From: Flavobacteriaceae bacterium
Lineage (GTDB): Bacteria > Bacteroidota > Bacteroidia > Flavobacteriales > Flavobacteriaceae
Assembly: GCA_024643425.1 (NCBI GenBank)
Contig: JAHEMY010000013.1
Location: 1 to 36,468 of the forward strand
Direction of reading: 5' to 3'
Length of the DNA stretch: 36,468 nt
Position numbers and translations under genes: made by a program. The notes under the pieces are model-generated. The model searched no databases. It was not told the origin of the DNA and was given only the letters and a program-made list of their open reading frames with translations. Below, piece after piece: positions 2,684-34,379 of the stretch. The first letter of the stretch is position 1. The number at the start of each line of letters is the position of its first letter.

Positions 2684-2693
2684 AGATTTGGGA

Positions 2694-5600
2694 GTGAAAA
2701 ATTACAATTTTAGAAACAGCTTCGCTAAATACATATTATTCGGAATTTTCATTTTAGCCGGAACCTTGGTACAAGCACAAGAGGATTCTACGGCAACCGG
2801 CTTTGATGTTGGTAGAATGGACCTTCCCAACCCAACCAGCATTCAAAACCTTTATACCTACGACCCCATAACGGATCGTTATATTCTTAGTCGAACCTTA
2901 GGAGATTTTAGTATTTCTTATCCGGTAATCTTAACACCGGAGGAATATCGTGACCTCGTTTTGAAGGAACAAATGAAAGAATATTTCAAAGAAAAAATCG
3001 ATGCTGCAGATGGACGTAAAGAGGGGGCGGAAGAAGCACAGAAAAATCTACTTCCAACTTTTTATGTGAATTCCAGTTTCTTCGAATCGGTTTTTGGAGG
3101 AAATACCATTGAAATCATACCACAAGGTACCGTAGAAATGGACCTTGGAATACTCTATACCAAACAAGATAATCCACAATTCTCTCCTAGAAACCGAAGC
3201 AATTTGTCTTTTGACTTCGACCAGAGAATTAGTTTGAGTTTATTAGGGAAAATTGGGGAACGCCTTCAAGTAACGGCCAATTATGATACCCAATCGACCT
3301 TCGACTTTCAAAATTTAATCAAACTTGAATATACGCCTACCGAGGACGATATTATTCAAAAAATTGAAGTGGGTAATGTGAGCATGCCTTTAAACAGTTC
3401 ACTTATTCAAGGAGCCCAAAGTTTGTTTGGGGTAAAAACACAATTGCAATTTGGAAAAACAACCATAACGGGTGTCTTCTCTGAGCAACGTTCAGAAACG
3501 CGATCGGTGGTGGCCGAAGGAGGAGCAACCGTTACAGATTACGAATTGTTTGCACTAGACTACGACGAAAACCGACACTTTTTCCTTGCGCATTACTTTC
3601 GAGATAATTACGACCGTGTCTTGCAGAATTATCCTTTTATCAATTCTCAAGTGCAAATTACCCGCGCAGAAGTTTGGATCACTAATAGAAATACAACCAC
3701 CAACGATGTTCGAAATATTGTGGCGCTTCAGGATATTGGAGAAGCCGATATTAGTAATATTGGTCTGAGTGTGGTTCCCGGAGGGTTTATCAACCGACCA
3801 AAAAATTCATTTCCCGATAACCGAAATAACGACTTTAACCCGTTTGGAATCGATAACCCTGCGGAACAAAGTATTTTAAATAACTCAATTCGAGATGTAG
3901 CGACAGTGCAAGGCGGATTCGGTGGTGTTCAAGTAAATGATGGAATTGATTATGTGAGCTTAGAAAATGCTCGAAAACTTCAGCCCAACGAATACCAGAT
4001 GAACAACCAATTGGGGTATATATCGCTAAACCAACGTCTCAATAACGACGAAGTATTGGCGGTGGCGTTTCAGTATACAGTGAATGGTAAAGTATATCAA
4101 GTTGGAGAATTTTCGACTGATGGTGTGGAAGCTACCGGACAAGAAGGAGGAGGCGTTATTCCTCCTGGTGGAGATCCCAATGGAGGTGGCCAACAAGGAA
4201 TTCCTCAAAACCTGGTGGTTAAACTTTTGAAGAGTAATATCACCAACGTGAACGAACCTGTTTGGGATATTATGATGAAAAACATTTATCCTATTGGTGC
4301 TTTTCAATTGGAACAAGAAGATTTCAGGTTGAATATTTTGTATTTAGACCCGTCACCACTAAATTATATTTCCCCGGTGGAAGGCACTCCTTTTCCAGAT
4401 CCGGACCTAACAGATCCTAATGCCGTCGATTTAAACGACGCAACGTTGTTGAGAGTTTTCAATTTAGACCGATTAAACTATAATAACGACCCACAGCAAG
4501 GGGGAGATGGTTTCTTTGACTTTTATCCGGGAATCACCGTAGACCAGCAAAATGGTCGAATTATCTTTACAAGCGTAGAGCCTTTCGGATCTTTCCTTTT
4601 CAACAAATTAGAGAATAGCACATCGGAGGATTATGGAAATCCACAAACGTATAACGCGAATCAGCAGAAATACGTTTTTAGAACGCTATATCGCTCTACA
4701 AAAACACAGGCCGAACAGGAAGAAAGTGATAAAAATAAGTTCCAGTTAAAGGGTACTTACAAATCAACCGGATCCGATGGTATTCCAATTGGAGCATTCA
4801 ATATCCCACAAGGATCGGTAACGGTTACCGCAGGAGGAAGAACCTTGGTTGAAGGAGTAGATTATACGGTGAACTATCAGTTGGGAAGAGTTCAAATCTT
4901 GGACCCTTCTTTGCAAAATTCAAACACTCCCATTAACATTAGCGTTGAAAATAATACGCTTTTCGGGCAGCAGACTAAACGATTTACAGGATTGGATATT
5001 CAACATAGATTCAATGATCAGTTCCAATTGGGAGGAACCTTCTTAAATCTTAATGAACGTCCGCTGACTCAAAAATCGTCCTTCCAAAATGAACCCATCA
5101 ACAATACCATGTTCGGTATTAATGGGAATTATTCAGCCGAAATACCTTTCCTTACGCGATTGGCCAATAAATTACCCAACATTGATACCGATGTGCCTTC
5201 AAACATTTCGATGCGTGGAGAATTTGCTTATTTGGTGCCAGGGGCTCCTAAAGTGTCGGATTTTGGAGGAAAGACGACTGCTTATGTTGACGATTTTGAA
5301 GCAGCACAAACAGCAATCGATATTTCAACACCACTTACCTGGTTCCTTTCTAGTACACCTATTGGTTTGGGAGGGGAAATAGAGAACAATAATTTAGCTT
5401 ACAACTACAACAGGGCTAAACTTAATTGGTACACCATCGACCCAATTTTCTATAGCTCACAGCGGCCTGATGGTATTTCAGAAGCAGACCTTTCTTCTCC
5501 ATTTACAAGAAGAATTTTTAGAAATGAGATCTTTCCTGATCAGGATTTAGTTCAAGGACAAACACAAGCATTGTTCACCTTGGACCTAGCGTATAAACCG

Positions 5601-8600
5601 AGTGAACGAGGACCCTACAACTTCAACCCGGTAGCAGCAGGAGGAAATACCTTGCCAAATCCTGAAGCTAGATTTGGTGGGATATCGCGACAATTAACCA
5701 CAACCGATTTTGAACGTTCCAATGTGGAATACATTCAGTTTTGGTTGATGGACCCATTTATTTATGATGAGAATAGTACTAATCCGGGAGGAAAATTAAC
5801 ATTCAACTTAGGAAATATTTCTGAAGACGTTCTTAAGGATGGTAGAAAACAATATGAAAACGGACTCCCTGAAGACGGATCCGAATTAAACACGCTTACC
5901 ACAGAATGGGGTAGAGTTCCGAGCAACCAATCTTTAGTATACACCTTCAGCAGCACAGGAGCAGGAAGAGCCAATCAAGATATTGGATTGGATGGTTTGA
6001 ATGATGGTGCAGAAGCTGCAAAATTCCCCGATTTTGCCAATCAGCCTGACCCTGCTAATGATAATTACCAGTATTTTTTACAAGCAGAAGGGAATATTCT
6101 AGAACGCTATAATCTTTTTAACGGAACAGAAGGAAACGCTCCGGAGACCTTGAGCAATACTAATCGTGGTGCTACCGCTCAACCGGACGTGGAGGACATC
6201 AACCGTGATAACACGATGAATACGGTCGACAGTTATTATGAATATGCGATCAATTTGGTTCCGGGAATGACCTTAGAGTCGCAATATGTTTCGGATATTA
6301 AGGAGATTACAATCACTACACAAACCAACGAAGATATTCCTGTGCGATGGATTCAATTTAGAATTCCGTTGAGTGATTATACCGATGCGATAAATGGAAT
6401 TTCAGACTTCCGTTCTATTCGATTTATGAGAATGTATATGTCCGAATTTCAACAAGAAACAGTACTTCGTTTTGGTACCTTGGAACTCTTTAGAGGGGAT
6501 TATAGAAGGTATATCGAATCCTTGGATGCCGATGGAAGTAGCAATGATCTTGACAATACCACTTTCGAGAACGAAGCTGTAGGGATAATTCAAAATAGTA
6601 ATTACGTAATTCCGCCCGGTGTATTTCGAGAAGAATTAAATAATAATAACAACATTATTCGTCAAGATGAGCAATCATTGGCATTACGTGTTTGTGAATT
6701 AGAACCGGACGATGCTCGTGCAGTTTACAAGAATTTTAACGTAGACATGCGACAATACAAGAATCTGGAAATGTTTATTCACGCGGAATCCTTGCCTCCT
6801 CCGGCAACCTTATTGTCCGATGGAGATATGGCGGCGTTCATCCGATTGGGGAACGATTTAAATACCAGTTTCTACGAAATTGAAATTCCGTTAAACGTCT
6901 CTCCAAACCTTGAAAATCCATCAGATTCTGATGCAGACATTGTTTGGCCTTTAGAAAACAGATTAAACTTGCCTTTGCGATTACTGCAGGATGTTAAGGC
7001 AAGAGTTCTCGGAGATCCAACTAGCGATATTACGGAAATCACGTATTTTGATCAATCCGAACTAGATCCAAGTTCTGTGGGTTCTGAAAACGAACTTCGA
7101 ATAGGAATTAAAGGGAATCCAAGTTTTGGTAATGTTCGTGTGATTATGATCGGACTTAGAAATAAATCAAATAGTGATGTTTGCGGAGAAGTTTGGTTTA
7201 ACGAACTTAGAATGAGTGAGTTAGAGAATAAAGGAGGTTGGGCTGCCGTGGCGAATATGGATGCGAATATTGCAGATTTTGCCAATGTGAGTGCGACGGG
7301 AAGAGTTTCGACCATTGGGTTTGGTTCGATTGAGCAAGGGCCAAATCAACGAAGTTTGGAGGATACCAAACAATACGACGTTGTGACTAATTTCAATTTA
7401 GGACAATTATTACCTCCTAAATGGGGAATTCAACTTCCGTTTAATTATGGGATTGGGGAAGAATTAATTACCCCAAAGTACGACCCGGAATTCGATGATA
7501 TTGAATTACAGGAACGCTTAGACAGTACCACTGATGCTGCTCAAAGGGATGCGATCGAGGAACAGGCCATAAATTATACCAAACGCCAGAGTATAAATTT
7601 CATTGGGGTTCGAAAAAATAAAACGGGAGAAAGTAAACCGATGCCGTATGATGTCGAAAACTTCACTTTTTCTTACTCGTACAACCAAACCGATCATCAC
7701 GATTTTGAAATAGAAGATGCATTGGATCAAAATGTTCGATTGGGTGGAACGTATGATTATTCCTTTGTTCAAAAACCAATTGAACCTTTCAAAAAGAACG
7801 ATTCCTTGTTTACTGGGAAGTACTGGCAATTCCTGAAAGATTTAAACTTCAATGCATTACCCAGTAATATTTCTGTAAGCTCAAACATTACTAGGCAATA
7901 TAAAGAGCAGAAATTTAGAGAGTTAAATTTACTGCCTGGACAAATAGGGTTGCCGGTGTTATACCAGAGAAACTTCTTGTTCGACTGGCAATACACCATT
8001 AATTATAACCTTACCAATTCACTCCGCTTTAATTTCAATGCGGCGAACAATCGCATTATAAATAATTATATCCAAGATGGAATCGTCGATAATTCGATTG
8101 GCGTTTGGGATGGATTTTTCCAAGTGGGTGATCCAAACCAACATTTCCAGTCGTTGCAGCTGAACTACGATTTGCCTACGGCGAAGTTTCCATTCTTAAA
8201 ATGGATAAGAGCAACCTATTCTTATCAAGGAGATTTCCAGTGGCAGGATGGATCCGATTTGTTTAGTAACATTCAAGTTCCTTCTGAGGATGGTGATCCT
8301 ATAAGTTATAATCTAGGAAATTCTATTCAAAATGCGAGTACGCATCGAATCAATTCGACGCTTGATATGAATAGCTTTTATCGTTATATCGGATTAACAA
8401 AAATTAAAGGGAACAGAGCCGGTGGTCGTTCTGGTGAAGAAGAAAAAGGAGGAGACTCCTCACGCGGTGGGGATAATGATGGTAGTAACGATGGCAAAGC
8501 ACCCTCAGCCGATGACAAACGAAACCAGATTAGAAATGGCCGTGGTGGCGGAGATGGAGTTGTTGGAGGATCTGGATCTTTAAATGGAGGCCAAAAAGCA

Positions 8601-9941
8601 ATGAATACCTTGATTGGTTTGCTTACCTCGGTTAAAAAAATTCAACTAAATTATCAGGAAAACAATGGTATTTTCTTGCCAGGATATACACCGGATGTAG
8701 GATTTGCAGGTACCTTAAAACCAACAACTGGATTTGTATTCGGAAGTCAGGCCGAGGTGAGAGAATTGGCAGCTCGAAAGGGATGGCTTACTTTATATCC
8801 TGAATTCAATGAACAGTATACCGAGGTGGAATCTAGACAATTGGATGCACAAGCCAACATCGAATTATTACCTGACTTAAAAATTGACTTGAATGGTTCA
8901 AGAGTATACTCAGAAAATTATACCGAGAACTATATTGTTGAAGATGATATTTATCGATCATTAACACCCAATACATTTGGAAACTTTAATATTTCAACGC
9001 TCTTGGTAAAAACAGCCTTTAGTAAAAGCGACGAAACGGGATCTGATGCCTTTAATGATTTTAGAAGTAATCGTATTACCATTGCAAATCGTTTGGCAGA
9101 AAAATTCTATGGGTCGACTACTTATCCTAGGGATGATGAAGGGTACCCGGTTGGATTTGGTAAAACGAGTCAGCAGGTATTGTTACCTTCTTTCCTATCT
9201 GCCTATAAAGGAAGTGATGCATCGAAAGAAGAGACCGGAATATTCAGGGATATTCCTATCCCTAACTGGGATCTGAAATATACGGGCTTAATGCGTATTA
9301 AGTGGTTTAAAAAACAATTCAAACGTTTTTCAATCCAGCATGGATACCGAGCTGCCTATACGGTGAATCAATTCCAATCAAACTTGGACTACGATCCAAA
9401 CAATCCTGAAGATGTTGATCAATCCGGGAATTTCAAAGCCCCTACCTTGTTGAACAATGTGAACCTTACAGAACAATTCTCACCTTTAGTTCGAATTGAT
9501 TTTGAAATGCAAAACTCAGTAAAAATTCTTGCCGAGCTTCGAAAAGATCGAGCATTGTCTTTAAGTTTTGCAAATAACCTGCTTACTGAAATTAAAGGAG
9601 ATGAGTTGATTCTCGGACTCGGATACCGTATTAAAGATTTGAGAATTGGAACCAATTTTGGTGGAAAGAAAACGGTCTTACGCAGTGATTTAAACTTTAA
9701 GATGGACTTCTCCGTGCGAGAGAACAAAACCATCATTCGATACTTAGATATTGAAAATAATCAAACTACAGCAGGACAAACCATTTATGGATTGCAATTC
9801 TCGGCCGATTACGCGCTGAGCAAGAATTTAACAGCCTTGTTCTATTACGATCATACGTTCTCTGAATATGCGATCTCTACGGCATTCCCGCAAACTACAA
9901 TTCGAAGCGGGATTACCTTGCGATATAACTTTGGAAATTAA
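2694..9941 (+). CDS. sprA: T9SS outer-membrane translocon / cell surface gliding protein SprA
   Basis: SprA forms the very large outer-membrane beta-barrel of the type IX secretion system, through which gliding adhesins such as SprB and RemA and secreted enzymes leave the cell (established for Flavobacterium johnsoniae). The product is about 2415 residues, the usual family size. A signal peptide is visible (hydrophobic ILFGIFILAGTLVQAQ within the first 31 residues). The early segment around residues 55-110 (YDPITDRYILSRTLGDF) matches the SprA N-terminal domain, and the rest alternates barrel-like strands with long loops, ending in an aromatic strand (LRYNFGN). No ATG is available near the N-terminus. 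GTG at 2694 gives a typical signal peptide start; TTG at 2688 would add two residues. There is no T9SS sorting domain, as expected for the translocon itself. Two glycine-rich low-complexity inserts occur (see findings). It is cotranscribed with ruvA; gcvH follows after 24 nt. Confidence 0.96.
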   Translation: MKNYNFRNSFAKYILFGIFILAGTLVQAQEDSTATGFDVGRMDLPNPTSIQNLYTYDPITDRYILSRTLGDFSISYPVILTPEEYRDLVLKEQMKEYFKEKIDAADGRKEGAEEAQKNLLPTFYVNSSFFESVFGGNTIEIIPQGTVEMDLGILYTKQDNPQFSPRNRSNLSFDFDQRISLSLLGKIGERLQVTANYDTQSTFDFQNLIKLEYTPTEDDIIQKIEVGNVSMPLNSSLIQGAQSLFGVKTQLQFGKTTITGVFSEQRSETRSVVAEGGATVTDYELFALDYDENRHFFLAHYFRDNYDRVLQNYPFINSQVQITRAEVWITNRNTTTNDVRNIVALQDIGEADISNIGLSVVPGGFINRPKNSFPDNRNNDFNPFGIDNPAEQSILNNSIRDVATVQGGFGGVQVNDGIDYVSLENARKLQPNEYQMNNQLGYISLNQRLNNDEVLAVAFQYTVNGKVYQVGEFSTDGVEATGQEGGGVIPPGGDPNGGGQQGIPQNLVVKLLKSNITNVNEPVWDIMMKNIYPIGAFQLEQEDFRLNILYLDPSPLNYISPVEGTPFPDPDLTDPNAVDLNDATLLRVFNLDRLNYNNDPQQGGDGFFDFYPGITVDQQNGRIIFTSVEPFGSFLFNKLENSTSEDYGNPQTYNANQQKYVFRTLYRSTKTQAEQEESDKNKFQLKGTYKSTGSDGIPIGAFNIPQGSVTVTAGGRTLVEGVDYTVNYQLGRVQILDPSLQNSNTPINISVENNTLFGQQTKRFTGLDIQHRFNDQFQLGGTFLNLNERPLTQKSSFQNEPINNTMFGINGNYSAEIPFLTRLANKLPNIDTDVPSNISMRGEFAYLVPGAPKVSDFGGKTTAYVDDFEAAQTAIDISTPLTWFLSSTPIGLGGEIENNNLAYNYNRAKLNWYTIDPIFYSSQRPDGISEADLSSPFTRRIFRNEIFPDQDLVQGQTQALFTLDLAYKPSERGPYNFNPVAAGGNTLPNPEARFGGISRQLTTTDFERSNVEYIQFWLMDPFIYDENSTNPGGKLTFNLGNISEDVLKDGRKQYENGLPEDGSELNTLTTEWGRVPSNQSLVYTFSSTGAGRANQDIGLDGLNDGAEAAKFPDFANQPDPANDNYQYFLQAEGNILERYNLFNGTEGNAPETLSNTNRGATAQPDVEDINRDNTMNTVDSYYEYAINLVPGMTLESQYVSDIKEITITTQTNEDIPVRWIQFRIPLSDYTDAINGISDFRSIRFMRMYMSEFQQETVLRFGTLELFRGDYRRYIESLDADGSSNDLDNTTFENEAVGIIQNSNYVIPPGVFREELNNNNNIIRQDEQSLALRVCELEPDDARAVYKNFNVDMRQYKNLEMFIHAESLPPPATLLSDGDMAAFIRLGNDLNTSFYEIEIPLNVSPNLENPSDSDADIVWPLENRLNLPLRLLQDVKARVLGDPTSDITEITYFDQSELDPSSVGSENELRIGIKGNPSFGNVRVIMIGLRNKSNSDVCGEVWFNELRMSELENKGGWAAVANMDANIADFANVSATGRVSTIGFGSIEQGPNQRSLEDTKQYDVVTNFNLGQLLPPKWGIQLPFNYGIGEELITPKYDPEFDDIELQERLDSTTDAAQRDAIEEQAINYTKRQSINFIGVRKNKTGESKPMPYDVENFTFSYSYNQTDHHDFEIEDALDQNVRLGGTYDYSFVQKPIEPFKKNDSLFTGKYWQFLKDLNFNALPSNISVSSNITRQYKEQKFRELNLLPGQIGLPVLYQRNFLFDWQYTINYNLTNSLRFNFNAANNRIINNYIQDGIVDNSIGVWDGFFQVGDPNQHFQSLQLNYDLPTAKFPFLKWIRATYSYQGDFQWQDGSDLFSNIQVPSEDGDPISYNLGNSIQNASTHRINSTLDMNSFYRYIGLTKIKGNRAGGRSGEEEKGGDSSRGGDNDGSNDGKAPSADDKRNQIRNGRGGGDGVVGGSGSLNGGQKAMNTLIGLLTSVKKIQLNYQENNGIFLPGYTPDVGFAGTLKPTTGFVFGSQAEVRELAARKGWLTLYPEFNEQYTEVESRQLDAQANIELLPDLKIDLNGSRVYSENYTENYIVEDDIYRSLTPNTFGNFNISTLLVKTAFSKSDETGSDAFNDFRSNRITIANRLAEKFYGSTTYPRDDEGYPVGFGKTSQQVLLPSFLSAYKGSDASKEETGIFRDIPIPNWDLKYTGLMRIKWFKKQFKRFSIQHGYRAAYTVNQFQSNLDYDPNNPEDVDQSGNFKAPTLLNNVNLTEQFSPLVRIDFEMQNSVKILAELRKDRALSLSFANNLLTEIKGDELILGLGYRIKDLRIGTNFGGKKTVLRSDLNFKMDFSVRENKTIIRYLDIENNQTTAGQTIYGLQFSADYALSKNLTALFYYDHTFSEYAISTAFPQTTIRSGITLRYNFGN

Positions 9942-17327: not shown

Positions 17328-19418
17328 ATGAAGCAAAATGTGTCTCTTATTTTGTTTTTCCTTTTCGCATTAACGTTCTCTTTTGGTCAAAACGAGCAAG
17401 ACGAACTCAACATCTATCCCATCTTTTCGAAATGTGATCAAACAACGGGAAAAGAATTAGAGTCATGTTTTAACAACACGGTGCTCGAACTTGTGTTCGC
17501 CAATTTTAAAATGCCCGAAGGAATCGATCAGGGAAATTATTCCGGAGAGGTAAAAGTTTTGTTTGAAGTAGATCAGGAGGGAAAATTCAAAGTGGTTTAT
17601 GTCGATACTGCCCACGACGAAATTCGCCTAGAAGTTGAACGAACATTTACGCAGTTTCCGCAAATTCAAGCACCCACTTACAATGGGAAACCTACGTATA
17701 TGCAATTCACCATTTCCTTTGCCGTTCCGCTAGGCACGGTTGTAGGGGCTTCAACGGCTAACGAGCCTACGGTCGATTCCAGAGCCTCCTTGAATCAAGA
17801 ATACGATCAAGTTGAGGAATTGCAATATACCAACCGCGAATATCGAAGCGGAATTAACATTCCATTGTCGCATCATAACTATAGTTTATTTGATTCCAAT
17901 ATGAATAGGGTTGGCACGAATAGCCATACAGCACAGAAACCATATACCTATGCAGAGGTTAATAAATATTACGATTTTGAATCAAAAAATCAAGAACTCT
18001 TGAAGTCAAGCCGAACATGGCTTGGAAGGAAATGGTGGAACGAACATCTTGTGGCCTTCGAAAGTGAAGATTATTGGTTTACCCTTGATCCCGGTGTAGA
18101 TTTGCAAGTAGGGAAAGATACAGAAGGGGACATTAACACCTACAACAATACGCGTTTAGTGTATGCACAAGGAGGGATTGGGAAACAGTTTGATTTTTTT
18201 GCAGTGGTTTATGAAAGTCAAGGGCGGTTTGCAGATTACTTTAATCGGTATGCCGAATCCATTCGTCCCGATGGTGGGAATCCTGCCATTATTCCCGGGC
18301 GCGGAATTGCCAAAGAGTTTAAAGAGGATTCGTACGATTATCCTGTTGCCACAGGACATATTTCATATACGCCTTCAAAATATTTCAATATTCAATTAGG
18401 TCATGGCAAGAATTTTATAGGAGATGGATATCGTTCTTTGTTAATGAGTGACAATTCAAGTCCGTATCCTTTTTTTAAAGTCAACACCAATATTTGGAAA
18501 ATTAAATACACCAATACCTGGATGTCGCTTCGCGATGTGCGACCGGAAGTCACCGCAGATGGTTCTTTTAGGACAAAATATATAGCAAATCATTACTTGA
18601 GCTATAATGCTACCAAACGATGGAACATTGGGCTTTTCGAGTCTGTGATTTGGGAGAACGATAATGATCGAGGCTTTGATTTTAATTATTTAAACCCTGT
18701 AATTTTTTATCGTGCCATCGAATTTTCGACCGGATCCAGAGGGGGGAATGCCTTAATTGGACTCTCATCCAAATACAAAATAAACGACCGTGTGAATGCC
18801 TATGGCCAATTAATTATCGATGAGTTTTCCTCTAGCGATATTTTTGGTGGCAAGGGAAGCTATAAAAATAAAGTAGGCTATCAATTAGGAGCAAAATATT
18901 ATGACGCCTTTGGTCTAAAGGGCTTATTGCTGCAAGGTGAATACAATCGTGTTCGACCATATACCTATTCCCATAATACCGTAATCTTAAATTATGGTCA
19001 TAACAACCAGTCTATGGCCCATACGTTAGGAGCAAATTTTTCAGAGTTCATTACGATAGCACGCTACCAGCGCGGACGAATTTTTGCCGACGCAAAATTA
19101 ATTTTTGCAAAGCGAGGGTTTGAATTCAATACGGAAGAAGACTCATTTTTCTATGGTGGAGATATCTATGGTACGGAAGACAATCGTGTATCGGATGATG
19201 GCAACGATCTAGGACAAGGAAATACCACCGATTTTTTCCATGGGGAATTCCAGGCGGGTTATTTGATTAACCCTGCGACCAATCTTAAAATTTACGGAAG
19301 TTTTATTTACCGAGATTTTAGTCCGGAGATAGATACAGCGACTGTTTTTAACAATCAAACCGTGTGGTTCAATTTTGGAATAAGAACCGACTTATTTAAC
19401 TGGTATTATGATTTCTAA
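17328..19418 (+). CDS. remB: RemB-like outer-membrane gliding motility protein with TonB-C-like N-terminal domain
   Basis: Predicted outer-membrane beta-barrel. Signal peptide in residues 1-20 (LILFFLFALTFSFGQ). Residues about 25-145 resemble a TonB C-terminal domain (VKVLFEVDQEGKFKVVYVD, QFPQIQAPTYNGKP) with paired cysteines at IFSKCD and LESCFN. From about 175 onward come segments typical of flavobacterial RemB (SHHNYSLFDSN, RTWLGRKWWNEHL, EDYWFTLDPGVDLQVGKD), then many alternating beta strands rich in Tyr/Phe and a terminal aromatic residue (NWYYDF). From memory, F. johnsoniae remB lies a few genes after sprA and before cyoE, matching the layout here except for the inserted signalling block; the same barrel is sometimes labelled Wzi-like capsule assembly. 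RemB contributes to gliding, but its exact job is unknown. The stop codon overlaps that of the convergent hydrolase gene by 4 nt. Confidence 0.78.
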   Translation: MKQNVSLILFFLFALTFSFGQNEQDELNIYPIFSKCDQTTGKELESCFNNTVLELVFANFKMPEGIDQGNYSGEVKVLFEVDQEGKFKVVYVDTAHDEIRLEVERTFTQFPQIQAPTYNGKPTYMQFTISFAVPLGTVVGASTANEPTVDSRASLNQEYDQVEELQYTNREYRSGINIPLSHHNYSLFDSNMNRVGTNSHTAQKPYTYAEVNKYYDFESKNQELLKSSRTWLGRKWWNEHLVAFESEDYWFTLDPGVDLQVGKDTEGDINTYNNTRLVYAQGGIGKQFDFFAVVYESQGRFADYFNRYAESIRPDGGNPAIIPGRGIAKEFKEDSYDYPVATGHISYTPSKYFNIQLGHGKNFIGDGYRSLLMSDNSSPYPFFKVNTNIWKIKYTNTWMSLRDVRPEVTADGSFRTKYIANHYLSYNATKRWNIGLFESVIWENDNDRGFDFNYLNPVIFYRAIEFSTGSRGGNALIGLSSKYKINDRVNAYGQLIIDEFSSSDIFGGKGSYKNKVGYQLGAKYYDAFGLKGLLLQGEYNRVRPYTYSHNTVILNYGHNNQSMAHTLGANFSEFITIARYQRGRIFADAKLIFAKRGFEFNTEEDSFFYGGDIYGTEDNRVSDDGNDLGQGNTTDFFHGEFQAGYLINPATNLKIYGSFIYRDFSPEIDTATVFNNQTVWFNFGIRTDLFNWYYDF

Positions 19419-21498: not shown

Positions 21499-22082
21499 TG
21501 GATTATACCGAAGGGACAGAAGAATTAAAAATTCGTCGGGCAAAAAAAATGATGCTGTGGTTTGGGATTGTGAGCTTAGGAATGAGCTTTGCCGGCTTGA
21601 CAAGCGCCTATGTAGTGAGCAAGGAACGCGCGGATTGGTTGGAAAATCTGGAAATTCCAAATGCTTTCATCTATAGCTTGATTATTATCATGCTTAGTAG
21701 TGTTACCATGCTACTTGCAAAAAATGCAGTTTTGAAGGGCGAGCGAACCAAAGGATTTGTTTTTTTGGTCAGCACACTGTTATTGGGCGTACTATTTTTG
21801 GTTTTTCAGTACGTAGGATTCTCTCAAATCTATAACGATTTTGGATATGCCTTTACGGGAAGCACGAGCAGTATTACCTATTCATTCGTGTTTTTGATAG
21901 TTGTGGTGCACATAGCGCATGTAATTGCTGCGCTAGTTTCGCTTTTAGTCGTAATTTATAATCATTTTAAACAGCGTTATGTAAACGGTAAAACCCTTGG
22001 TATAGAACTATGTGCTACTTTCTGGCACTTCGTTGATTTCTTGTGGATTTACCTCTTTTTGTTTTTCTATTTCGTTAGATAA
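21498..22082 (+). CDS. Cytochrome c oxidase subunit III-type protein (short, 194 aa)
   Basis: Heme-copper oxidase subunit III family, inner membrane. About five hydrophobic helices: 18-40, 57-78, 86-106, 125-153 and 172-193. Conserved features include GMSFAGLTSAYVV, the central VVHIAHVIAALVSLL and the terminal FWHFVDFLWIYLFLFFY, the family signature. Starts with ATG overlapping the cyoE stop by one nucleotide. It is followed by a second, longer subunit III gene, an arrangement usual in Bacteroidota, where the subunit III function appears to be split or duplicated. Subunits I and II are not encoded nearby. Confidence 0.93.
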   Translation: MDYTEGTEELKIRRAKKMMLWFGIVSLGMSFAGLTSAYVVSKERADWLENLEIPNAFIYSLIIIMLSSVTMLLAKNAVLKGERTKGFVFLVSTLLLGVLFLVFQYVGFSQIYNDFGYAFTGSTSSITYSFVFLIVVVHIAHVIAALVSLLVVIYNHFKQRYVNGKTLGIELCATFWHFVDFLWIYLFLFFYFVR

Positions 22083-22125: not shown

Positions 22126-23109
22126 ATGGAAGCTACTGTTGCTAAAACAGGTACTGAAGGAAAAACTTGGGGCGGAGGAAACCGTCCGCTCAATGCCAGT
22201 TATGGCAAATTGATGATGTGGTTTTTCATAGTTTCGGATGCCTTAACTTTCTCGGGCTTTATTGCCTCTTACGGTTTTTCAAGATTTAAATTTATCGATG
22301 CCTGGCCGGTTGCAGATGAAGTGTTTACACACGTTCCATTTTTGCATGGTGTTCCAGCTCCTATGTATTACGTAGCTTTCATGACCTTGGTGCTTATTTT
22401 CTCCTCGGTTACGATGGTATTGGCTGTAGATGCAGGACACAAGATGCAACGAACTAAAGTAGCATGGTATATGTTCTTCACTATTATTGGTGGAGCTATT
22501 TTCGTGGGTTCTCAAGCTTGGGAATGGGCTACTTTTATTAAAGGAGACTATGGAGCCGTTGAAACCAAAGGGGGAAAAATTATTCAATTTTTAAATACGG
22601 AAGGGGAACGCGTTGCCCTTGCCGATTTTGCGAAACAATTGCCCGGAGATCGTGAAATTCACGAAAAGAAAAACGGAATCTGGTATGCGGAAGAGCCCGT
22701 AACCATGACGACTTTTTCTTTTGAAGAAGTTAAAGCTGGATTCTTGGCGAACGATGATCTGTTAATACGCACACAATATTTAGATGAACATGGACACCCG
22801 ACGGTGTTGTCTCGTGAAGCATCTATTGAAAAATTAGTAAATGACGGTAAACTCGTGGTTGAAGGTGCTAACCTTCGTCATAACGAGTACGGTCATCCAC
22901 TTTTTGCCAATTTCTTCTTTTTCATTACAGGTTTCCACGGATTCCACGTATTCTCGGGAGTAGTAATTAACATCATTATCTTTTTCAACGTAATTCTAGG
23001 AACCTACGAACGTAGAAAGAACTACGAAATGGTTGAAAAAGTTGGACTTTATTGGCACTTTGTAGATTTGGTTTGGGTATTCGTATTCACCTTTTTCTAT
23101 CTTGTATAA
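22126..23109 (+). CDS. Cytochrome c oxidase subunit III (327 aa, with soluble insertion)
   Basis: Membrane subunit of a heme-copper oxidase. Start ATG 22126 (MEATVAKTGTEGKTWGGG) is preferred over an in-frame upstream ATG at 22012 that lies inside the preceding gene. Helices at about 24-46, 67-90 and 103-122 precede a hydrophilic stretch of about 115 residues (about 123-240, KGDYGAVETKGG to RHNEYGHP), then helices with the signature FFFITGFHGFHVFSGV and terminal LYWHFVDLVWVFVFTFFYL. The large insertion between helices is common in Bacteroidota homologues and lies on one membrane face. The gene follows the short subunit III gene after 43 nt and precedes subunit IV by 17 nt. Confidence 0.95.
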   Translation: MEATVAKTGTEGKTWGGGNRPLNASYGKLMMWFFIVSDALTFSGFIASYGFSRFKFIDAWPVADEVFTHVPFLHGVPAPMYYVAFMTLVLIFSSVTMVLAVDAGHKMQRTKVAWYMFFTIIGGAIFVGSQAWEWATFIKGDYGAVETKGGKIIQFLNTEGERVALADFAKQLPGDREIHEKKNGIWYAEEPVTMTTFSFEEVKAGFLANDDLLIRTQYLDEHGHPTVLSREASIEKLVNDGKLVVEGANLRHNEYGHPLFANFFFFITGFHGFHVFSGVVINIIIFFNVILGTYERRKNYEMVEKVGLYWHFVDLVWVFVFTFFYLV

Positions 23110-23126: not shown

Positions 23127-23510
23127 ATGGCGCACGAACATAAATTAGAAATTTTTAGAGGTCTTTGGAAATTCAAGTCCAACATATCCAAAATCTGGGG
23201 AGTATTTGCATTCCTTTGTGCAGTAACAGCCGTAGAGGTAGTGCTGGGGATTGTAAAACCTGAGTCGCTTACCGATTCTCATTTTCTTGCAATGAAGACC
23301 CTTAACTGGATCTTCATTATCCTCACTTTAGTGAAGGCATATTATATCACCTGGGATTTCATGCACATGCGTGACGAATGGAAATCGTTGAGACGATCTG
23401 TGGTTTGGACTGCCGTTTTCTTAATCTGCTACTTAATTTTAATACTATTGATAGAAGGAGATTATATCTTTGACGTTTATAAAATGAACTATATAAAATT
23501 TGATTTTTAA
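23127..23510 (+). CDS. Cytochrome c oxidase subunit IV family protein
   Basis: 127-residue inner-membrane protein with three hydrophobic helices (about 24-41, 53-75 and 88-109), N-terminal MAHEHKLEIFRGLWKFK, matching bacterial oxidase subunit IV (COX4_pro/CyoD-like). Conserved VWTAVFLICYLILILL near the C-terminus. Role: stabilises the oxidase complex. It is the last gene of the cyoE-cox unit and is followed by a terminator. Confidence 0.9.
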   Translation: MAHEHKLEIFRGLWKFKSNISKIWGVFAFLCAVTAVEVVLGIVKPESLTDSHFLAMKTLNWIFIILTLVKAYYITWDFMHMRDEWKSLRRSVVWTAVFLICYLILILLIEGDYIFDVYKMNYIKFDF

Positions 23511-23530
23511 TCAATTCCTTTAAAAAATTT

Positions 23531-23557
23531 AAACCCTGTTCTACACAGGGTTTTTTT
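23531..23557 (+). terminator. Rho-independent terminator of the cyoE-cox operon
   Basis: AAACCCTGT (23531-23539) pairs with ACAGGGTTT (23545-23553), 5-nt loop, seven T's from 23551. Separates the cox genes from the following SCO-like unit. Confidence 0.9.
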
Positions 23558-23581
23558 ATACATTAAATTAACGAATCAGGG

Positions 23582-23612
23582 TTGTCCATCCTTTTTTTCA
23601 ATCGTATTTTTG
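23582..23612 (+). promoter_or_regulatory. Putative promoter of the SCO/DUF420 unit
   Basis: TTGT at 23582-23585, 19-nt spacer, TATTTTTG at 23605-23612 (exact TAnnTTTG), 21 nt before the ATG at 23634. The best-formed -33/-7 pair in the window. Confidence 0.6.
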
Positions 23613-23633
23613 TCAAAATGATTATCTGATATT

Positions 23634-24278
23634 ATGAAGAAATATATTGTTTTGGGCGTTCTGTTTATTTTACCCATAACTGTTTATTTGTTTTTTGCTT
23701 CAGGAGTGAATCACTTTGCCAAGCTCCCTATTCTTACTCAAGAAGTTACAGAAGTAAGTTCCTTTAAATCCTTAGACGGAGGAGAAGTCAATCTGCAAAA
23801 TCACATTACGGTATTAGGATTCTTTGGAACTTCAGTAGAGGCTAAAAAAGCCAATGCTTTTAACTTAGCGCATAAAATTTATAAGAAAAACTACGGATTT
23901 GAAGATTTTCAATTCATTATTTTGGCTACTGAAGATCAGCGTGACGATATCCAAAAACTCAAGGAAGAATTGAACCAAATCGCAGATCCATCGAAATATA
24001 TCTTCGCCCTAGGCAGTACTGAAGCAATTTCCAATGTTTTTCACTCCTTACAAACAAACGGCACACTCGATAGTCAGTTTGCGACCAATCTAGTATACAT
24101 CATCGACAAAGAAGGACACCTTCGCGGCAGAACCGATGATGAGGATAATGGAATGATGTACGGTTTTGACGCAAGTGATTATGCCGAAATTAACAATAAA
24201 ATGGGGGATGATGTAAAAATTATCCTAGCAGAGTATCGATTAGCACTCAAAAAATATAAATCGAATAGAGAAATTTAG
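23634..24278 (+). CDS. Cysteine-free SCO-like (thioredoxin-fold) membrane-anchored protein
   Basis: 214 residues with one N-terminal membrane anchor (YIVLGVLFILPITVYLFFA) and a predicted extracytoplasmic thioredoxin-like domain. It parallels the next gene's SCO protein: ITVLGFFGTSVEAKKAN aligns with the SCO strand and CxxxC loop but has no cysteine, and VYIIDKEGHLRGRTDDED aligns with ALVDQEGNIRSRKDDNG, yet the metal-binding His before that strand is absent. The whole protein contains no cysteine. It therefore cannot bind copper or do thiol exchange as SCO does. It is the first gene of a four-gene unit (gap of 2 nt to the SCO gene). Function unknown; an assembly scaffold is one possibility. 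Homology to SCO is my inference from alignment by eye. Confidence 0.7.
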   Translation: MKKYIVLGVLFILPITVYLFFASGVNHFAKLPILTQEVTEVSSFKSLDGGEVNLQNHITVLGFFGTSVEAKKANAFNLAHKIYKKNYGFEDFQFIILATEDQRDDIQKLKEELNQIADPSKYIFALGSTEAISNVFHSLQTNGTLDSQFATNLVYIIDKEGHLRGRTDDEDNGMMYGFDASDYAEINNKMGDDVKIILAEYRLALKKYKSNREI

Positions 24279-24280
24279 AA

Positions 24281-24973
24281 ATGGGTAAAAAACCTAACTA
24301 TTCCTACATAGGAATATCATTTGTAATCTTGGTCTTTGGAATATTATTCATTCCAAAAATTTTAAACCGCATTTCAAATAAAGAAATTGTCGATATGGAT
24401 CGGCACCAATTGGAGCGCAAAAAGGATTCAGAACCCAGAGAATTGGTTACCATTGGTAAAGTTCCCAATTTTAAAATGGTCAATCAAGATCAAGATACCA
24501 TCTCCAATGAATACTATGCGAGAAAGGTATACGTGGTAGAGTTCTTCTTTACTACCTGCCCATCCATTTGTCCTATCATGAATGAGAATATGACTAAAGT
24601 ACAGTATGCCTTCAAGGACAATACTAATATTGGCATTGCCTCCTTTACTATAAATCCGGAATACGACACTCCTGAAATATTAAAAGAATACGCCAACACC
24701 TATAAAATATCACATCCCAATTGGCATTTACTTACGGGTAAAAGGACCGAAATATATGACCTCGCAAATTCAGGCTTCAATTTATATGTTGGTGAAGCTG
24801 CAGAGGTAGAAGGAGGGTTTGAGCATTCCGGATTTTTTGCATTAGTCGATCAAGAGGGAAACATTAGAAGTAGAAAGGATGATAATGGGAATCCAATAAT
24901 CTATTACGACGGATTGGAAGAATCCAATATTGGGATGCTTATTGAAGACATAAATACCTTATTGAATGAATAA
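24281..24973 (+). CDS. SCO1/SenC-family copper chaperone
   Basis: Membrane-anchored thioredoxin-fold protein that delivers copper to the CuA site of cytochrome c oxidase subunit II. 230 residues: anchor at about 9-27 (GISFVILVFGILFIPKIL), then the SCO domain with CPSIC at about 94-98 (FFFTTCPSICPIMNEN) and the third copper ligand His in GFEHSGFFALVDQ (about 184). All three ligands are intact. Located between its cysteine-free paralogue and the DUF420 gene, whose ATG overlaps its end by 8 nt, so the unit is tightly coupled. Context with cyoE and cox genes supports an oxidase assembly role. Confidence 0.94.
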   Translation: MGKKPNYSYIGISFVILVFGILFIPKILNRISNKEIVDMDRHQLERKKDSEPRELVTIGKVPNFKMVNQDQDTISNEYYARKVYVVEFFFTTCPSICPIMNENMTKVQYAFKDNTNIGIASFTINPEYDTPEILKEYANTYKISHPNWHLLTGKRTEIYDLANSGFNLYVGEAAEVEGGFEHSGFFALVDQEGNIRSRKDDNGNPIIYYDGLEESNIGMLIEDINTLLNE

Positions 24974-25502
24974 TATGGAAAAATCAAACCTTGAAAAGCG
25001 ATATAACTTGGCGACTTGGATTTTATCCATTGCCATCCCGGTGGTGGTGGCGATATTATTTCGCGTGAGAATACCTAATGTAGAACCTTTAGATTTTTTA
25101 CCCCCCATTTATGCAACTTTTAACGGCATTACTTCTTTATTGCTAGTATTGGCAGTATATCAAATTAGGAATGGAAATCGGTTTTTACATGAAGTATTCA
25201 TGAAATCGGCCATCGTTTTGTCTTTATTGTTTTTAGTAATGTATGTTGCGTATCACATGACGTCAGACCCTACACCATTTGGAGGTGAGGGTTGGGTAAA
25301 GACGGTGTATTATTTTATTTTAATATCACACATTATATTGTCGGTGGCGGTGATTCCTTTCGTATTAATAACCTATATGCGTGCAGCATTAGGGAAGTTC
25401 CCACAGCACAAAAAAATAGCCAAAATCACCTTTCCAATTTGGCTCTATGTTTCTACGACCGGAGTTATAGTCTATTTAATGATTGCACCTTATTACTCTT
25501 AG
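24966..25502 (+). CDS. DUF420 family membrane protein
   Basis: 178-residue integral membrane protein with five predicted helices (about 15-32, 47-66, 79-100, 112-136 and 155-173). Family hallmark residues include ATFNGITSLLL, FLHEVFMKSAI and VAYHMTS with conserved histidines, and a later ISHIILS, suggesting metal or heme contact. As I recall, DUF420 proteins (YozB/CtaM type in Firmicutes) are required for aa3-type oxidase maturation; in Bacteroidota the family commonly sits beside SCO. ATG 24966 overlaps the SCO gene; ATG 24975 (MEKSNLEKRY) is an equally possible start. The small CxxC gene follows after 3 nt. Confidence 0.88.
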   Translation: MNNMEKSNLEKRYNLATWILSIAIPVVVAILFRVRIPNVEPLDFLPPIYATFNGITSLLLVLAVYQIRNGNRFLHEVFMKSAIVLSLLFLVMYVAYHMTSDPTPFGGEGWVKTVYYFILISHIILSVAVIPFVLITYMRAALGKFPQHKKIAKITFPIWLYVSTTGVIVYLMIAPYYS

Positions 25503-33689: not shown

Positions 33690-34379
33690 TTATAGTGTAT
33701 TGTAATAAGCGACCACTTTTTTCAGGGCCCACTCTTTGTTTATGTTTAAGCCTTCTACTTTGGCGTAGTTTTTCACTTCCTTTTTCTTGTCTTTGAACAA
33801 ATTAAATTTACCACTTTTAGAACTTGGAAATTCTTCAAATGCTCCCGACTTTTTATCAACTAGATAATAGGTTTCCTTTTCTTTATAGGTAGTTGGGATA
33901 TCTCGAGTTAAGGAAGTCATTGCTTCCGATCCTTCTATGTACTCCTTGGTTATTTTTTTGTACAATCCTGCGTGATCACCTTCCGTTAGTACCATAAAAT
34001 ATCGAGGACGACTCATTCCTTCTGCAGTAGGACTGAAAACAAACAATTTGTTCAACATTTTAACATAAATATCCGGATGCTTAATCATTACTTTGGCAGT
34101 TGCGTCCGGAGCATTTAGATTGGCTTTTACTTCCATCTCGTCTCTGAAAGCGTTATAGCGAAGACCTACGTTGGTGGCAAGAATTTCACCATTTTTAAAA
34201 ATTACTCCATTCACAAATTCATCATCCTCATAGGCAGAACCTGCAAAGTGAACGGCTTCTGGATTAAGGGTAATGTTTTTACTGGAAAGGAATTGATTGG
34301 TACTAATTTCTTCTGTGACATTTTGCGCAAAGGTTCCTAAGCTTAAAATCATTAAAAAGAAAGAAAGAAGTTGTTTCAT
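33690..34379 (-). CDS. Secreted protein of unknown function (229 aa)
   Basis: I do not recognise a family. Signal peptide (LLSFFLMILSLGTFAQ), no lipobox and no further membrane helix, so periplasmic or exported. The body mixes beta strands (GVIFKNGEILATNVGLRYN, DEMEVKAN) with a basic C-terminal part (KSGKFNLFKDKKKEVKN); no T9SS sorting domain is apparent. Residues 55-150 contain DEFVNGVIFKNGEI, reminiscent of flavobacterial proteins that track a structural property, but I assign no role. It lies downstream of, but 168 nt from, the DUF255 gene, with its own possible promoter, and ends at the hairpin beyond its stop. Confidence 0.8.
   Translation of the reverse strand: MKQLLSFFLMILSLGTFAQNVTEEISTNQFLSSKNITLNPEAVHFAGSAYEDDEFVNGVIFKNGEILATNVGLRYNAFRDEMEVKANLNAPDATAKVMIKHPDIYVKMLNKLFVFSPTAEGMSRPRYFMVLTEGDHAGLYKKITKEYIEGSEAMTSLTRDIPTTYKEKETYYLVDKKSGAFEEFPSSKSGKFNLFKDKKKEVKNYAKVEGLNINKEWALKKVVAYYNTL

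What the first reader, a model, noticed from the sequence alone, without database searches (positions are those of the whole stretch)
23634..24278. Cysteine-free SCO paralogue next to a canonical SCO
The 214-residue protein matches the SCO layout of its neighbour strand by strand yet lacks both CxxxC cysteines, the copper-binding His and in fact any cysteine. It heads the same transcription unit and is likely conserved with it. A pseudo-chaperone that binds apo-oxidase or SCO, or that holds another cofactor, would be a new type of assembly factor.
Basis: partly seen in the sequence, partly recalled or inferred. Interest (0 to 1): 0.55.

Follow-up and report, generated by a model that had tools for sequence, protein, structure and literature searches.

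The report
SCO-like protein lacking its copper site
Flavobacteria carry, beside the usual copper-delivery protein for their respiratory oxidase, a conserved sister protein of the same shape that has lost its copper-binding residues, which suggests that this protein shape has a second, copper-free job in building the oxidase.

Summary
The 214-aa product of 23634-24278 has no cysteine, and no His at the copper-ligand position. It is nevertheless a SCO homologue: AlphaFold2 pLDDT 89.9, VIA Z 15.3 to a solved SCO, profile-profile probability 97% with the adjacent SCO. It is not local decay: 189 of 199 Flavobacteriaceae genera encode it, 80 of 80 named loci keep it directly upstream of a CxxxC SCO, dN/dS is about 0.08, and no member in the 51- and 80-row sets has Cys at either CxxxC position. 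With SCO and DUF420 (CtaM) it forms its own transcription unit: after COX4 a terminator and a flavobacterial -7 box are conserved. It keeps the membrane anchor and C-terminal helix of the lone operon SCO of other Bacteroidia; its neighbour keeps the copper site. Elsewhere in Bacteroidia the operon SCO lost its ligands independently (at least 5 changes; a single clade is rejected); all 9 such genomes keep CuA and 8 keep another canonical SCO. Best reading: a copper- and thiol-independent scaffold for oxidase assembly, after subfunctionalisation of SCO. Function is inferred. Plant HCC2 is a known SCO paralogue without copper ligands, so this is a new variant of a known kind.

The parts
23634..24278 (+). 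ligand-less SCO paralogue (called PSCO here), 214 aa, 0 Cys
23637..23702 (+). PSCO residues 2-23: N-terminal membrane helix, resembling the anchor of the lone operon SCO of other Bacteroidia
   Evidence: AF2 helix; anchor HMM: 17 of 21 PSCO above 10 bits, adjacent SCO 0 of 20, unlinked SCO 0 of 20
23826..23864 (+). PSCO residues 65-77: former CxxxC loop, now with invariant Gly65 and Asn77
   Evidence: G65 and N77 in 80 of 80 rows, no Cys at positions 64-77
24123..24131 (+). PSCO R164-G165-R166 on the strand after the shortened Sco loop; both Arg shared with SCO
   Evidence: R164 in 51 of 51 PSCO and 67 of 67 SCO; R166 in 50 of 51 and 61 of 67
24180..24269 (+). PSCO residues 183-212: C-terminal helix (DD-K-IILAEYRLALKK), as in the lone operon SCO
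   Evidence: AF2 helix 183-212; tail HMM: 18 of 21 PSCO above 10 bits, adjacent SCO 3 of 20
23531..23553 (+). terminator hairpin after COX4 (9-bp stem, 5-nt loop, T-run)
   Evidence: present in 60 of 78 homologous gaps, at most 2 in 20 shuffle rounds
23605..23612 (+). TATTTTTG, flavobacterial -7 box (TAnnTTTG); a TTG lies at 23582
   Evidence: TAnnTTTG in 70 of 78 homologous gaps, shuffle mean 8.5, maximum 17; consensus in PMC6847099 and PMC9723704 (passages read)
24281..24973 (+). canonical SCO (CPSIC, His182)
   Evidence: PF02630; AF2 pLDDT 87.5
24966..25502 (+). DUF420 protein, the CtaM family of oxidase biogenesis
   Evidence: PF04238 E 1e-44; CtaM role from PMC9145763 section 9 (read)
23127..23510 (+). 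cytochrome c oxidase subunit IV (COX4_pro), last gene of the upstream unit
22126..23109 (+). COX3-type subunit (the listed ORF starts at 22012; an internal ATG near 22126 is the likelier start, inference)
   Evidence: PF00510
21498..22082 (+). second COX3-type subunit
   Evidence: PF00510
20605..21498 (+). UbiA-family prenyltransferase, heme O synthase (CtaB) by context
   Evidence: PF01040; CtaB assignment is inference

Best explanation
PSCO is a membrane-anchored periplasmic SCO-fold protein that works in cytochrome aa3 assembly without binding copper and without thiol chemistry. Shown: homology, fold, loss of the copper ligands, conservation, purifying selection, fixed place at the head of a PSCO-SCO-DUF420 unit (by sequence signals, not by transcript data), retention of the anchor and tail of the lone operon SCO, and repeated ligand loss in this operon slot while CuA and, in 8 of 9 genomes, another canonical SCO stay. 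Inferred: the ancestral operon SCO had two jobs, delivering copper or electrons to the CuA site of subunit II, and docking or positioning an assembly intermediate (subunit II, subunit III/IV or CtaM) at the membrane. In Flavobacteriaceae the jobs are split: the neighbour SCO keeps the copper site, and PSCO keeps the docking job, as a scaffold or adaptor that holds apo-subunit II or SCO in place, probably through the conserved R-x-R strand, the remodelled Gly65/Asn77 loop and the C-terminal DD..LAEYR helix.
For: Fold and homology. Present in 189 of 199 family genera; 8 of the other 10 also lack DUF420, and one of the remaining two (G213) has a diverged Cys-free copy in the slot. 80 of 80 named loci have PSCO then CxxxC SCO, 79 of 80 then DUF420 (the exception, L145, is a short contig end). 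Own promoter box and upstream terminator conserved; median PSCO-SCO gap 3.5 bp. Purifying selection: median dN/dS 0.08 over 56 measurable pairs of 81 (SCO 0.043 over 44, DUF420 0.067 over 64). Anchor and tail kept by PSCO but mostly not by its neighbour. In Bacteroidia, 8 of 40 fetched operon SCOs lack CxxxC; they and L236 also lack the ligand His; at least 5 changes on the tree, one clade rejected with p-AU 2e-6. All 9 such genomes keep the CuA motif and 8 of 9 have another CxxxC SCO. Ligand-less lone copies are also under purifying selection (dN/dS 0.07-0.21 in 3 measurable pairs of 5). No conserved His or Cys, only Met190. Literature: HCC2 without ligands rescues a yeast sco2/sod1 deletion under oxidative stress, and the role of such SCOs is called open (PMC6307045, PMC6696091, passages read).
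Against: No experiment and no complex model. G415 has DUF420, COX3 and SCO but no PSCO was found, so PSCO is not strictly needed in the family. 33 of 48 genomes with an operon SCO not scored as ligand-less have two or more SCOs without such a loss, so a second SCO does not force it. Deep branching is unresolved: neither 'PSCO and SCO are sisters' (p-AU 0.185) nor 'the neighbour SCO comes from the unlinked type' (p-AU 0.086) is rejected, so tandem duplication against replacement is open. PSCO dN/dS is about twice that of SCO. Pfam does not see the family.
Confidence: 0.58

Rival explanations
1. PSCO is a structural (supernumerary) subunit of the mature aa3 oxidase or of the ACIII-aa3 supercomplex rather than an assembly factor.
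For: One TM helix plus a periplasmic domain, conserved next to subunit genes. The F. johnsoniae supercomplex is listed only as map EMD-7447 (PMC8361435, passage read), so absence of a related chain in the PDB is weak evidence.
Against: It shares its transcription unit with two assembly factors (SCO, DUF420/CtaM) and is cut off from the subunit genes by a conserved terminator and promoter box. It is a paralogue of an assembly factor.
Confidence: 0.13
2. PSCO is a decoy or regulator: it binds SCO or subunit II and limits copper or thiol transfer when copper is scarce or stress is high.
For: A ligand-less paralogue can compete for the partner of the active one (inference); placed in one unit with SCO.
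Against: Retained even in family genomes of 1.2-1.9 Mb; similar losses occur in genomes where the active SCO is unlinked.
Confidence: 0.1
3. Stress-defence role as proposed for plant HCC2, separate from oxidase assembly.
For: HCC2 loss gives UV-B sensitivity with normal COX activity, and HCC2 rescues a yeast sco2/sod1 double deletion under oxidative stress (PMC3971200, PMC6307045, passages read).
Against: PSCO is fixed beside oxidase genes, and 8 of 10 family genomes without a hit also lack DUF420. It usually has no Cys at all (71 of 80 rows), whereas HCC2 keeps five (PMC3971200, passage read).
Confidence: 0.09
4. PSCO binds another cofactor (heme, another metal) in place of copper.
For: Met190 is conserved (46 of 51, 80 of 80); acidic residues D192, D193 and E200 are invariant in the 80-row set.
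Against: No His or Cys conserved in half or more of the members; the Sco loop is shortened.
Confidence: 0.04
5. Decaying duplicate or relic without function.
For: Faster evolution than SCO.
Against: 189 of 199 genera, intact frames, dN/dS 0.08, invariant residues, conserved promoter box.
Confidence: 0.01

Closest known systems
SCO1/SenC copper chaperones (PF02630; BsSco/YpmQ, Bradyrhizobium ScoI, human SCO1/SCO2)
   Same: Fold (VIA Z 15.3 to 4hde, 14.5 to 1xzo), N-terminal membrane anchor, oxidase gene neighbourhood, shared D158, R164, R166 and D193.
   Different: No CxxxC, no ligand His, shortened Sco loop, below Pfam detection.
Plant HCC2 / AtSCO2
   Same: SCO paralogue lacking both Cys of CxxxC and the His, kept beside a canonical SCO (PMC3971200, PMC6307045, passages read).
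   Different: Mitochondrial; still has five Cys; not needed for COX activity in Arabidopsis. PSCO is bacterial, usually Cys-free and fixed in an oxidase assembly operon. Common origin was not tested; independent loss is assumed.
Eukaryotic SCO1/SCO2 pairs with recurrent divergence (PMC7414715)
   Same: Independent SCO duplications (at least eight) followed by recurrent asymmetric change (passages read).
   Different: There the recurrent changes are two substitutions and two indels; the passages read do not describe loss of the copper ligands.
Lone operon SCO of other Bacteroidia (COX4-SCO-DUF420)
   Same: Same slot, same anchor and C-terminal helix.
   Different: Mostly keeps CxxxC and His; lost independently in several lineages.

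Membership tests
SCO copper chaperone | thioredoxin-like SCO fold | tested here: met
   AF2 pLDDT 89.9; VIA Z 15.3, rmsd 2.5, 152 aligned to 4hde
SCO copper chaperone | sequence homology to SCO | tested here: met
   hhalign 97.2%, E 4.3e-11; local SCO profile hits the window protein at 2e-5. PF02630 itself gives no match in 23 members
SCO copper chaperone | CxxxC copper/thiol motif | tested here: not met
   no Cys at either position in 51 of 51 and in the 80-row A3 alignment
SCO copper chaperone | third copper ligand His in the Sco loop | tested here: not met
   His182 column: no His among 21 PSCO; GGF of the loop absent in 51 of 51. In the A3 alignment 3 of 80 have His at position 150, the window protein has Ala
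SCO copper chaperone | single N-terminal membrane anchor with the domain outside | tested here: met
   helix 2-23 in the AF2 model; orientation inferred from the positive N-terminus
SCO copper chaperone | binds copper and is needed for CuA assembly | not testable with these tools
   needs purified protein and a deletion strain
HCC2-type ligand-less SCO | SCO paralogue lacking CxxxC and His, coexisting with a canonical SCO | tested here: met
HCC2-type ligand-less SCO | orthology with plant HCC2 | not tested
   no plant sequence was put on the tree
Oxidase assembly module (SCO + CtaM) | co-transcription with SCO and DUF420 | tested here: inconclusive
   gene order in 79 of 80 named loci and conserved terminator and promoter box ahead of PSCO point to it; no transcript data

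The most novel reading that the evidence does not exclude
The SCO fold has a second, copper- and thiol-independent job in heme-copper oxidase assembly. Bacteroidia have separated that job from copper delivery several times by stripping the ligands from the operon copy while another SCO keeps the copper site; in Flavobacteriaceae the outcome is a fixed three-part assembly module, PSCO-SCO-CtaM.
Probability: 0.45. Interest if true: 0.75.

Novelty: new variant of a known kind. Interest (0 to 1): 0.56.

Why it matters
Why SCO proteins without copper ligands persist and can replace other SCOs has been called surprising and open (PMC6696091, concluding section, passage read). Here is a bacterial family in which ligand loss is complete, fixed across nearly a whole family, repeated elsewhere in the class, and genetically accessible: F. 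johnsoniae deletion strains of the ACIII-aa3 branch were made, on the reasoning that a bd oxidase is also present (PMC8552683, passages read). It would let the copper-free role of SCO be tested apart from copper delivery.

Tried and rejected
Simple decay: rejected by distribution, intact frames and dN/dS. Misaligned motif: rejected, as the window protein has no Cys at all and the ligand-less class copies have no C-x3-C in the motif region. Ligand loss explained by loss of CuA: rejected, 9 of 9 such genomes keep C-x3-C-x3-H-x2-M in COX2. Weak Pfam hits to XdhC_C and DUF4303 (below cut-off) and weak PDB hits to a flagellar motor protein (E 0.47): treated as chance. Profile search of the PDB with the family: no chain at E up to 1. 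A sigma-70-type promoter scan of the region gave no more than shuffles, as expected for this phylum; the TAnnTTTG box was used instead. Whether PSCO arose by tandem duplication or by arrival of another SCO: tested and left open. One clade of all ligand-less copies was rejected, but L203, L053, L162 and L204 are long branches; without them 5 changes remain. The grouping of L203 with PSCO on the tree may be long-branch attraction. Link between ligand loss and a second SCO: all but one of the ligand-less genomes have one (the exception, G567, is 88% complete), yet 33 of 48 genomes with an operon SCO not scored as ligand-less also have two or more, so no statistical claim is made. Dropped rows: A3 holds 79 of the 80 named loci (L097 left out) plus the window; A4 holds 44 of the 80 neighbour SCOs plus the window; dN/dS uses only pairs with PSCO identity of 75% or more and drops pairs with saturated dS (PSCO 25 of 81). 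Of the 101 class genomes outside the family that matched the PSCO profile, 40 were fetched, mostly the best-scoring, so 8 of 40 is not a frequency. L236 was not checked for its neighbours; its sister genome G553 has the copy in the operon (L209). The tree used 113 hand-picked rows with the motif and His columns removed. The anchor and tail HMMs were cut by script at a consensus position; a first, longer N- and C-terminal test gave the same trend for the N-terminus but no difference for the C-terminus, because it took in part of the core domain. The viral fold library, phage, plasmid and E. coli collections were not searched, since they do not bear on the question. In literature searches (listings) I saw no description of a Cys-free SCO in Bacteroidota; the library holds only open-licence papers. 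The genome survey of SCO proteins by Banci 2007 and the supercomplex paper of Sun 2018 are not held and were not read. Remarks on -33 spacing and type II membrane topology are recalled or inferred.

Full report
What is there. The ORF at 23634-24278 codes for 214 residues without a cysteine. It follows ctaB-like, COX3, COX3 and COX4 genes and precedes a canonical SCO (24281-24973, CPSIC) and a DUF420 gene. DUF420 is the CtaM family, needed late in oxidase biogenesis in Bacillus and Staphylococcus (PMC9145763, section 9 read). I call the ORF product PSCO.

Homology and fold. Pairwise BLAST sees only one short stretch between PSCO and its neighbour, and Pfam gives no SCO match for 23 family members. 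Profiles settle it: hhalign of 23 PSCO rows against 45 SCO rows gives 97.2% and E 4.3e-11 over 148 columns, and locally built profiles cross-hit in a part of the loci. AlphaFold2 gives pLDDT 89.9 and VIA Z 15.3 and 14.5 to two solved SCO proteins, above disulfide oxidoreductases, glutathione peroxidases and peroxiredoxins at 13.1 and lower. Shared residues are D158, R164 and D193 (51 of 51 PSCO; 67 of 67 SCO) and nearly R166.

Loss of the copper site. In 51 PSCO from two searches and later fetches no Cys lies at either CxxxC column, and the GGF of the Sco loop is absent in 51 of 51. In an 80-row set 71 have no Cys at all, and the other nine have one at positions 62, 98 or 154; 3 of 80 have a His at the position of the ligand His. 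No His or Cys is conserved in half or more of the members; Met190 is. This speaks against another metal or heme.

Distribution. PSCO was found in 19 of 19 family genomes of the first draw and in 189 of 199 genera of the family. Of the ten without a hit, eight have no DUF420 match; G213 has a diverged Cys-free SCO-like protein in the same slot; G415 has DUF420, COX3 and a CxxxC SCO but no PSCO, a true exception. In other families of the order f10, f12 and f13 also have PSCO, whereas f7, f8, f11, f14 and f15 have a single CxxxC SCO after COX4, with DUF420 next to it or, in f11 and f15, not adjacent. Of 19 order genomes without a P0001 match that were tested, 18 lack DUF420, and the nineteenth, G043, proved to have a ligand-less copy followed by SCO and DUF420.

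Transcription unit. The gap between COX4 and PSCO holds a 9-bp terminator hairpin with T-run (23531-23553) and then TATTTTTG (23605-23612), which fits the flavobacterial -7 consensus TAnnTTTG/TAHHTTTG (PMC6847099, PMC9723704, passages read). In 78 homologous gaps, 60 have a terminator (at most 2 in 20 shuffle rounds), 70 have TAnnTTTG (mean 8.5, maximum 17 in 200 shuffle rounds), and 58 have both in that order. Within 100 bp upstream of SCO the box occurs in 5 of 80, of DUF420 in 2 of 79, of COX4 in 17 of 76, and of PSCO in 65 of 78. So PSCO most likely heads a separate PSCO-SCO-DUF420 unit. That favours an assembly role over a structural one.

Selection. For 81 pairs with 75% or more PSCO identity, the median dN/dS of the measurable pairs is 0.08 for PSCO (56), 0.043 for SCO (44), 0.0435 for COX4 (74) and 0.067 for DUF420 (64). 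PSCO is constrained, somewhat less than SCO.

Division of parts. An HMM of the N-terminal anchor built from 43 lone operon SCOs scores above 10 bits in 17 of 21 PSCO but in 0 of 20 adjacent SCOs and 0 of 20 unlinked SCOs. An HMM of the C-terminal tail does so in 18 of 21 PSCO, 3 of 20 adjacent SCOs and 6 of 20 unlinked SCOs. The training set itself scores 41 of 43 and 43 of 43. PSCO thus kept the anchor and tail of the operon SCO, and the neighbour kept the copper site. Whether the neighbour is a tandem duplicate or an incoming SCO is not resolved (p-AU 0.185 and 0.086).

Repeated loss elsewhere. Of 198 class genomes, 107 matched the PSCO profile. I fetched 40 loci out of the 101 outside the family. 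In 8 of these 40 the SCO-like protein in the slot lacks CxxxC, and a ninth case (L236, genome G645) came. All nine also lack the His. Two species of one genus lost different cysteines, while a third keeps both (L187, L208, L210). Two more copies keep CxxxC but lack the His, which look like intermediates. On a careful tree without the motif columns the ligand state changes at least 6 times (5 without four long rows), and holding all ligand-less rows together is rejected (p-AU 2.2e-6). All nine genomes keep the CuA motif of COX2, and eight have another CxxxC SCO; the ninth (G567) is 88% complete. Two same-genus pairs show dN/dS of 0.085 and 0.072, and a third pair 0.21. Among 48 genomes with an operon SCO not scored as ligand-less, 15 have one PF02630 match at E 1e-10 and 33 have two or more, so a second SCO permits but does not force the loss.

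Reading. The pattern is best explained by a copper-free function of the SCO fold at this place in the operon, most simply docking or holding an assembly intermediate of the CuA subunit. That step is inferred. Plant HCC2 shows that ligand-less SCOs can be functional, and a review states that their role is unexplained (PMC3971200, PMC6307045, PMC6696091, passages read). PSCO is therefore filed as a SCO paralogue that fails the defining copper-site tests, a new variant of a known kind.

Noticed in passing
window 23511-23633: Conserved terminator plus -7 box splits ctaB-COX3-COX3-COX4 from PSCO-SCO-DUF420; in other Bacteroidia the operon SCO often overlaps or abuts COX4 with no such gap.
   Followed up: yes
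L187, L208, L210 (one genus, G538, G573, G495): Operon SCO caught in stepwise loss: one species lost the second Cys, one the first, one keeps both; both losers also lack the His.
   Followed up: partly
L162 (G213) 6196-6903: Diverged Cys-free SCO-like protein in the slot of a family member that P0001 does not find; on the tree it does not join the other PSCO (long branch).
   Followed up: partly
L161 (G415): Family genome with DUF420, two COX3-type genes and a CxxxC SCO but neither PSCO nor a COX4 profile hit; probably a different oxidase cluster.
   Followed up: no
L094: Record titled Rhodobacter sp. MAG carries the flavobacterial operon (60% identity); likely a misassigned contig.
   Followed up: no
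window 2688-9941: 2417-aa SprA-type protein (Pfam SprA_N), type IX secretion translocon.
   Followed up: no
window 17328-19418 and 33690-34379: ORFs of 696 and 229 aa without a Pfam match at E 1e-5.
   Followed up: no
G000 C75:1911-2306 (L080, L172): Second, unlinked canonical SCO (CTSIC) in the window's own genome.
   Followed up: partly
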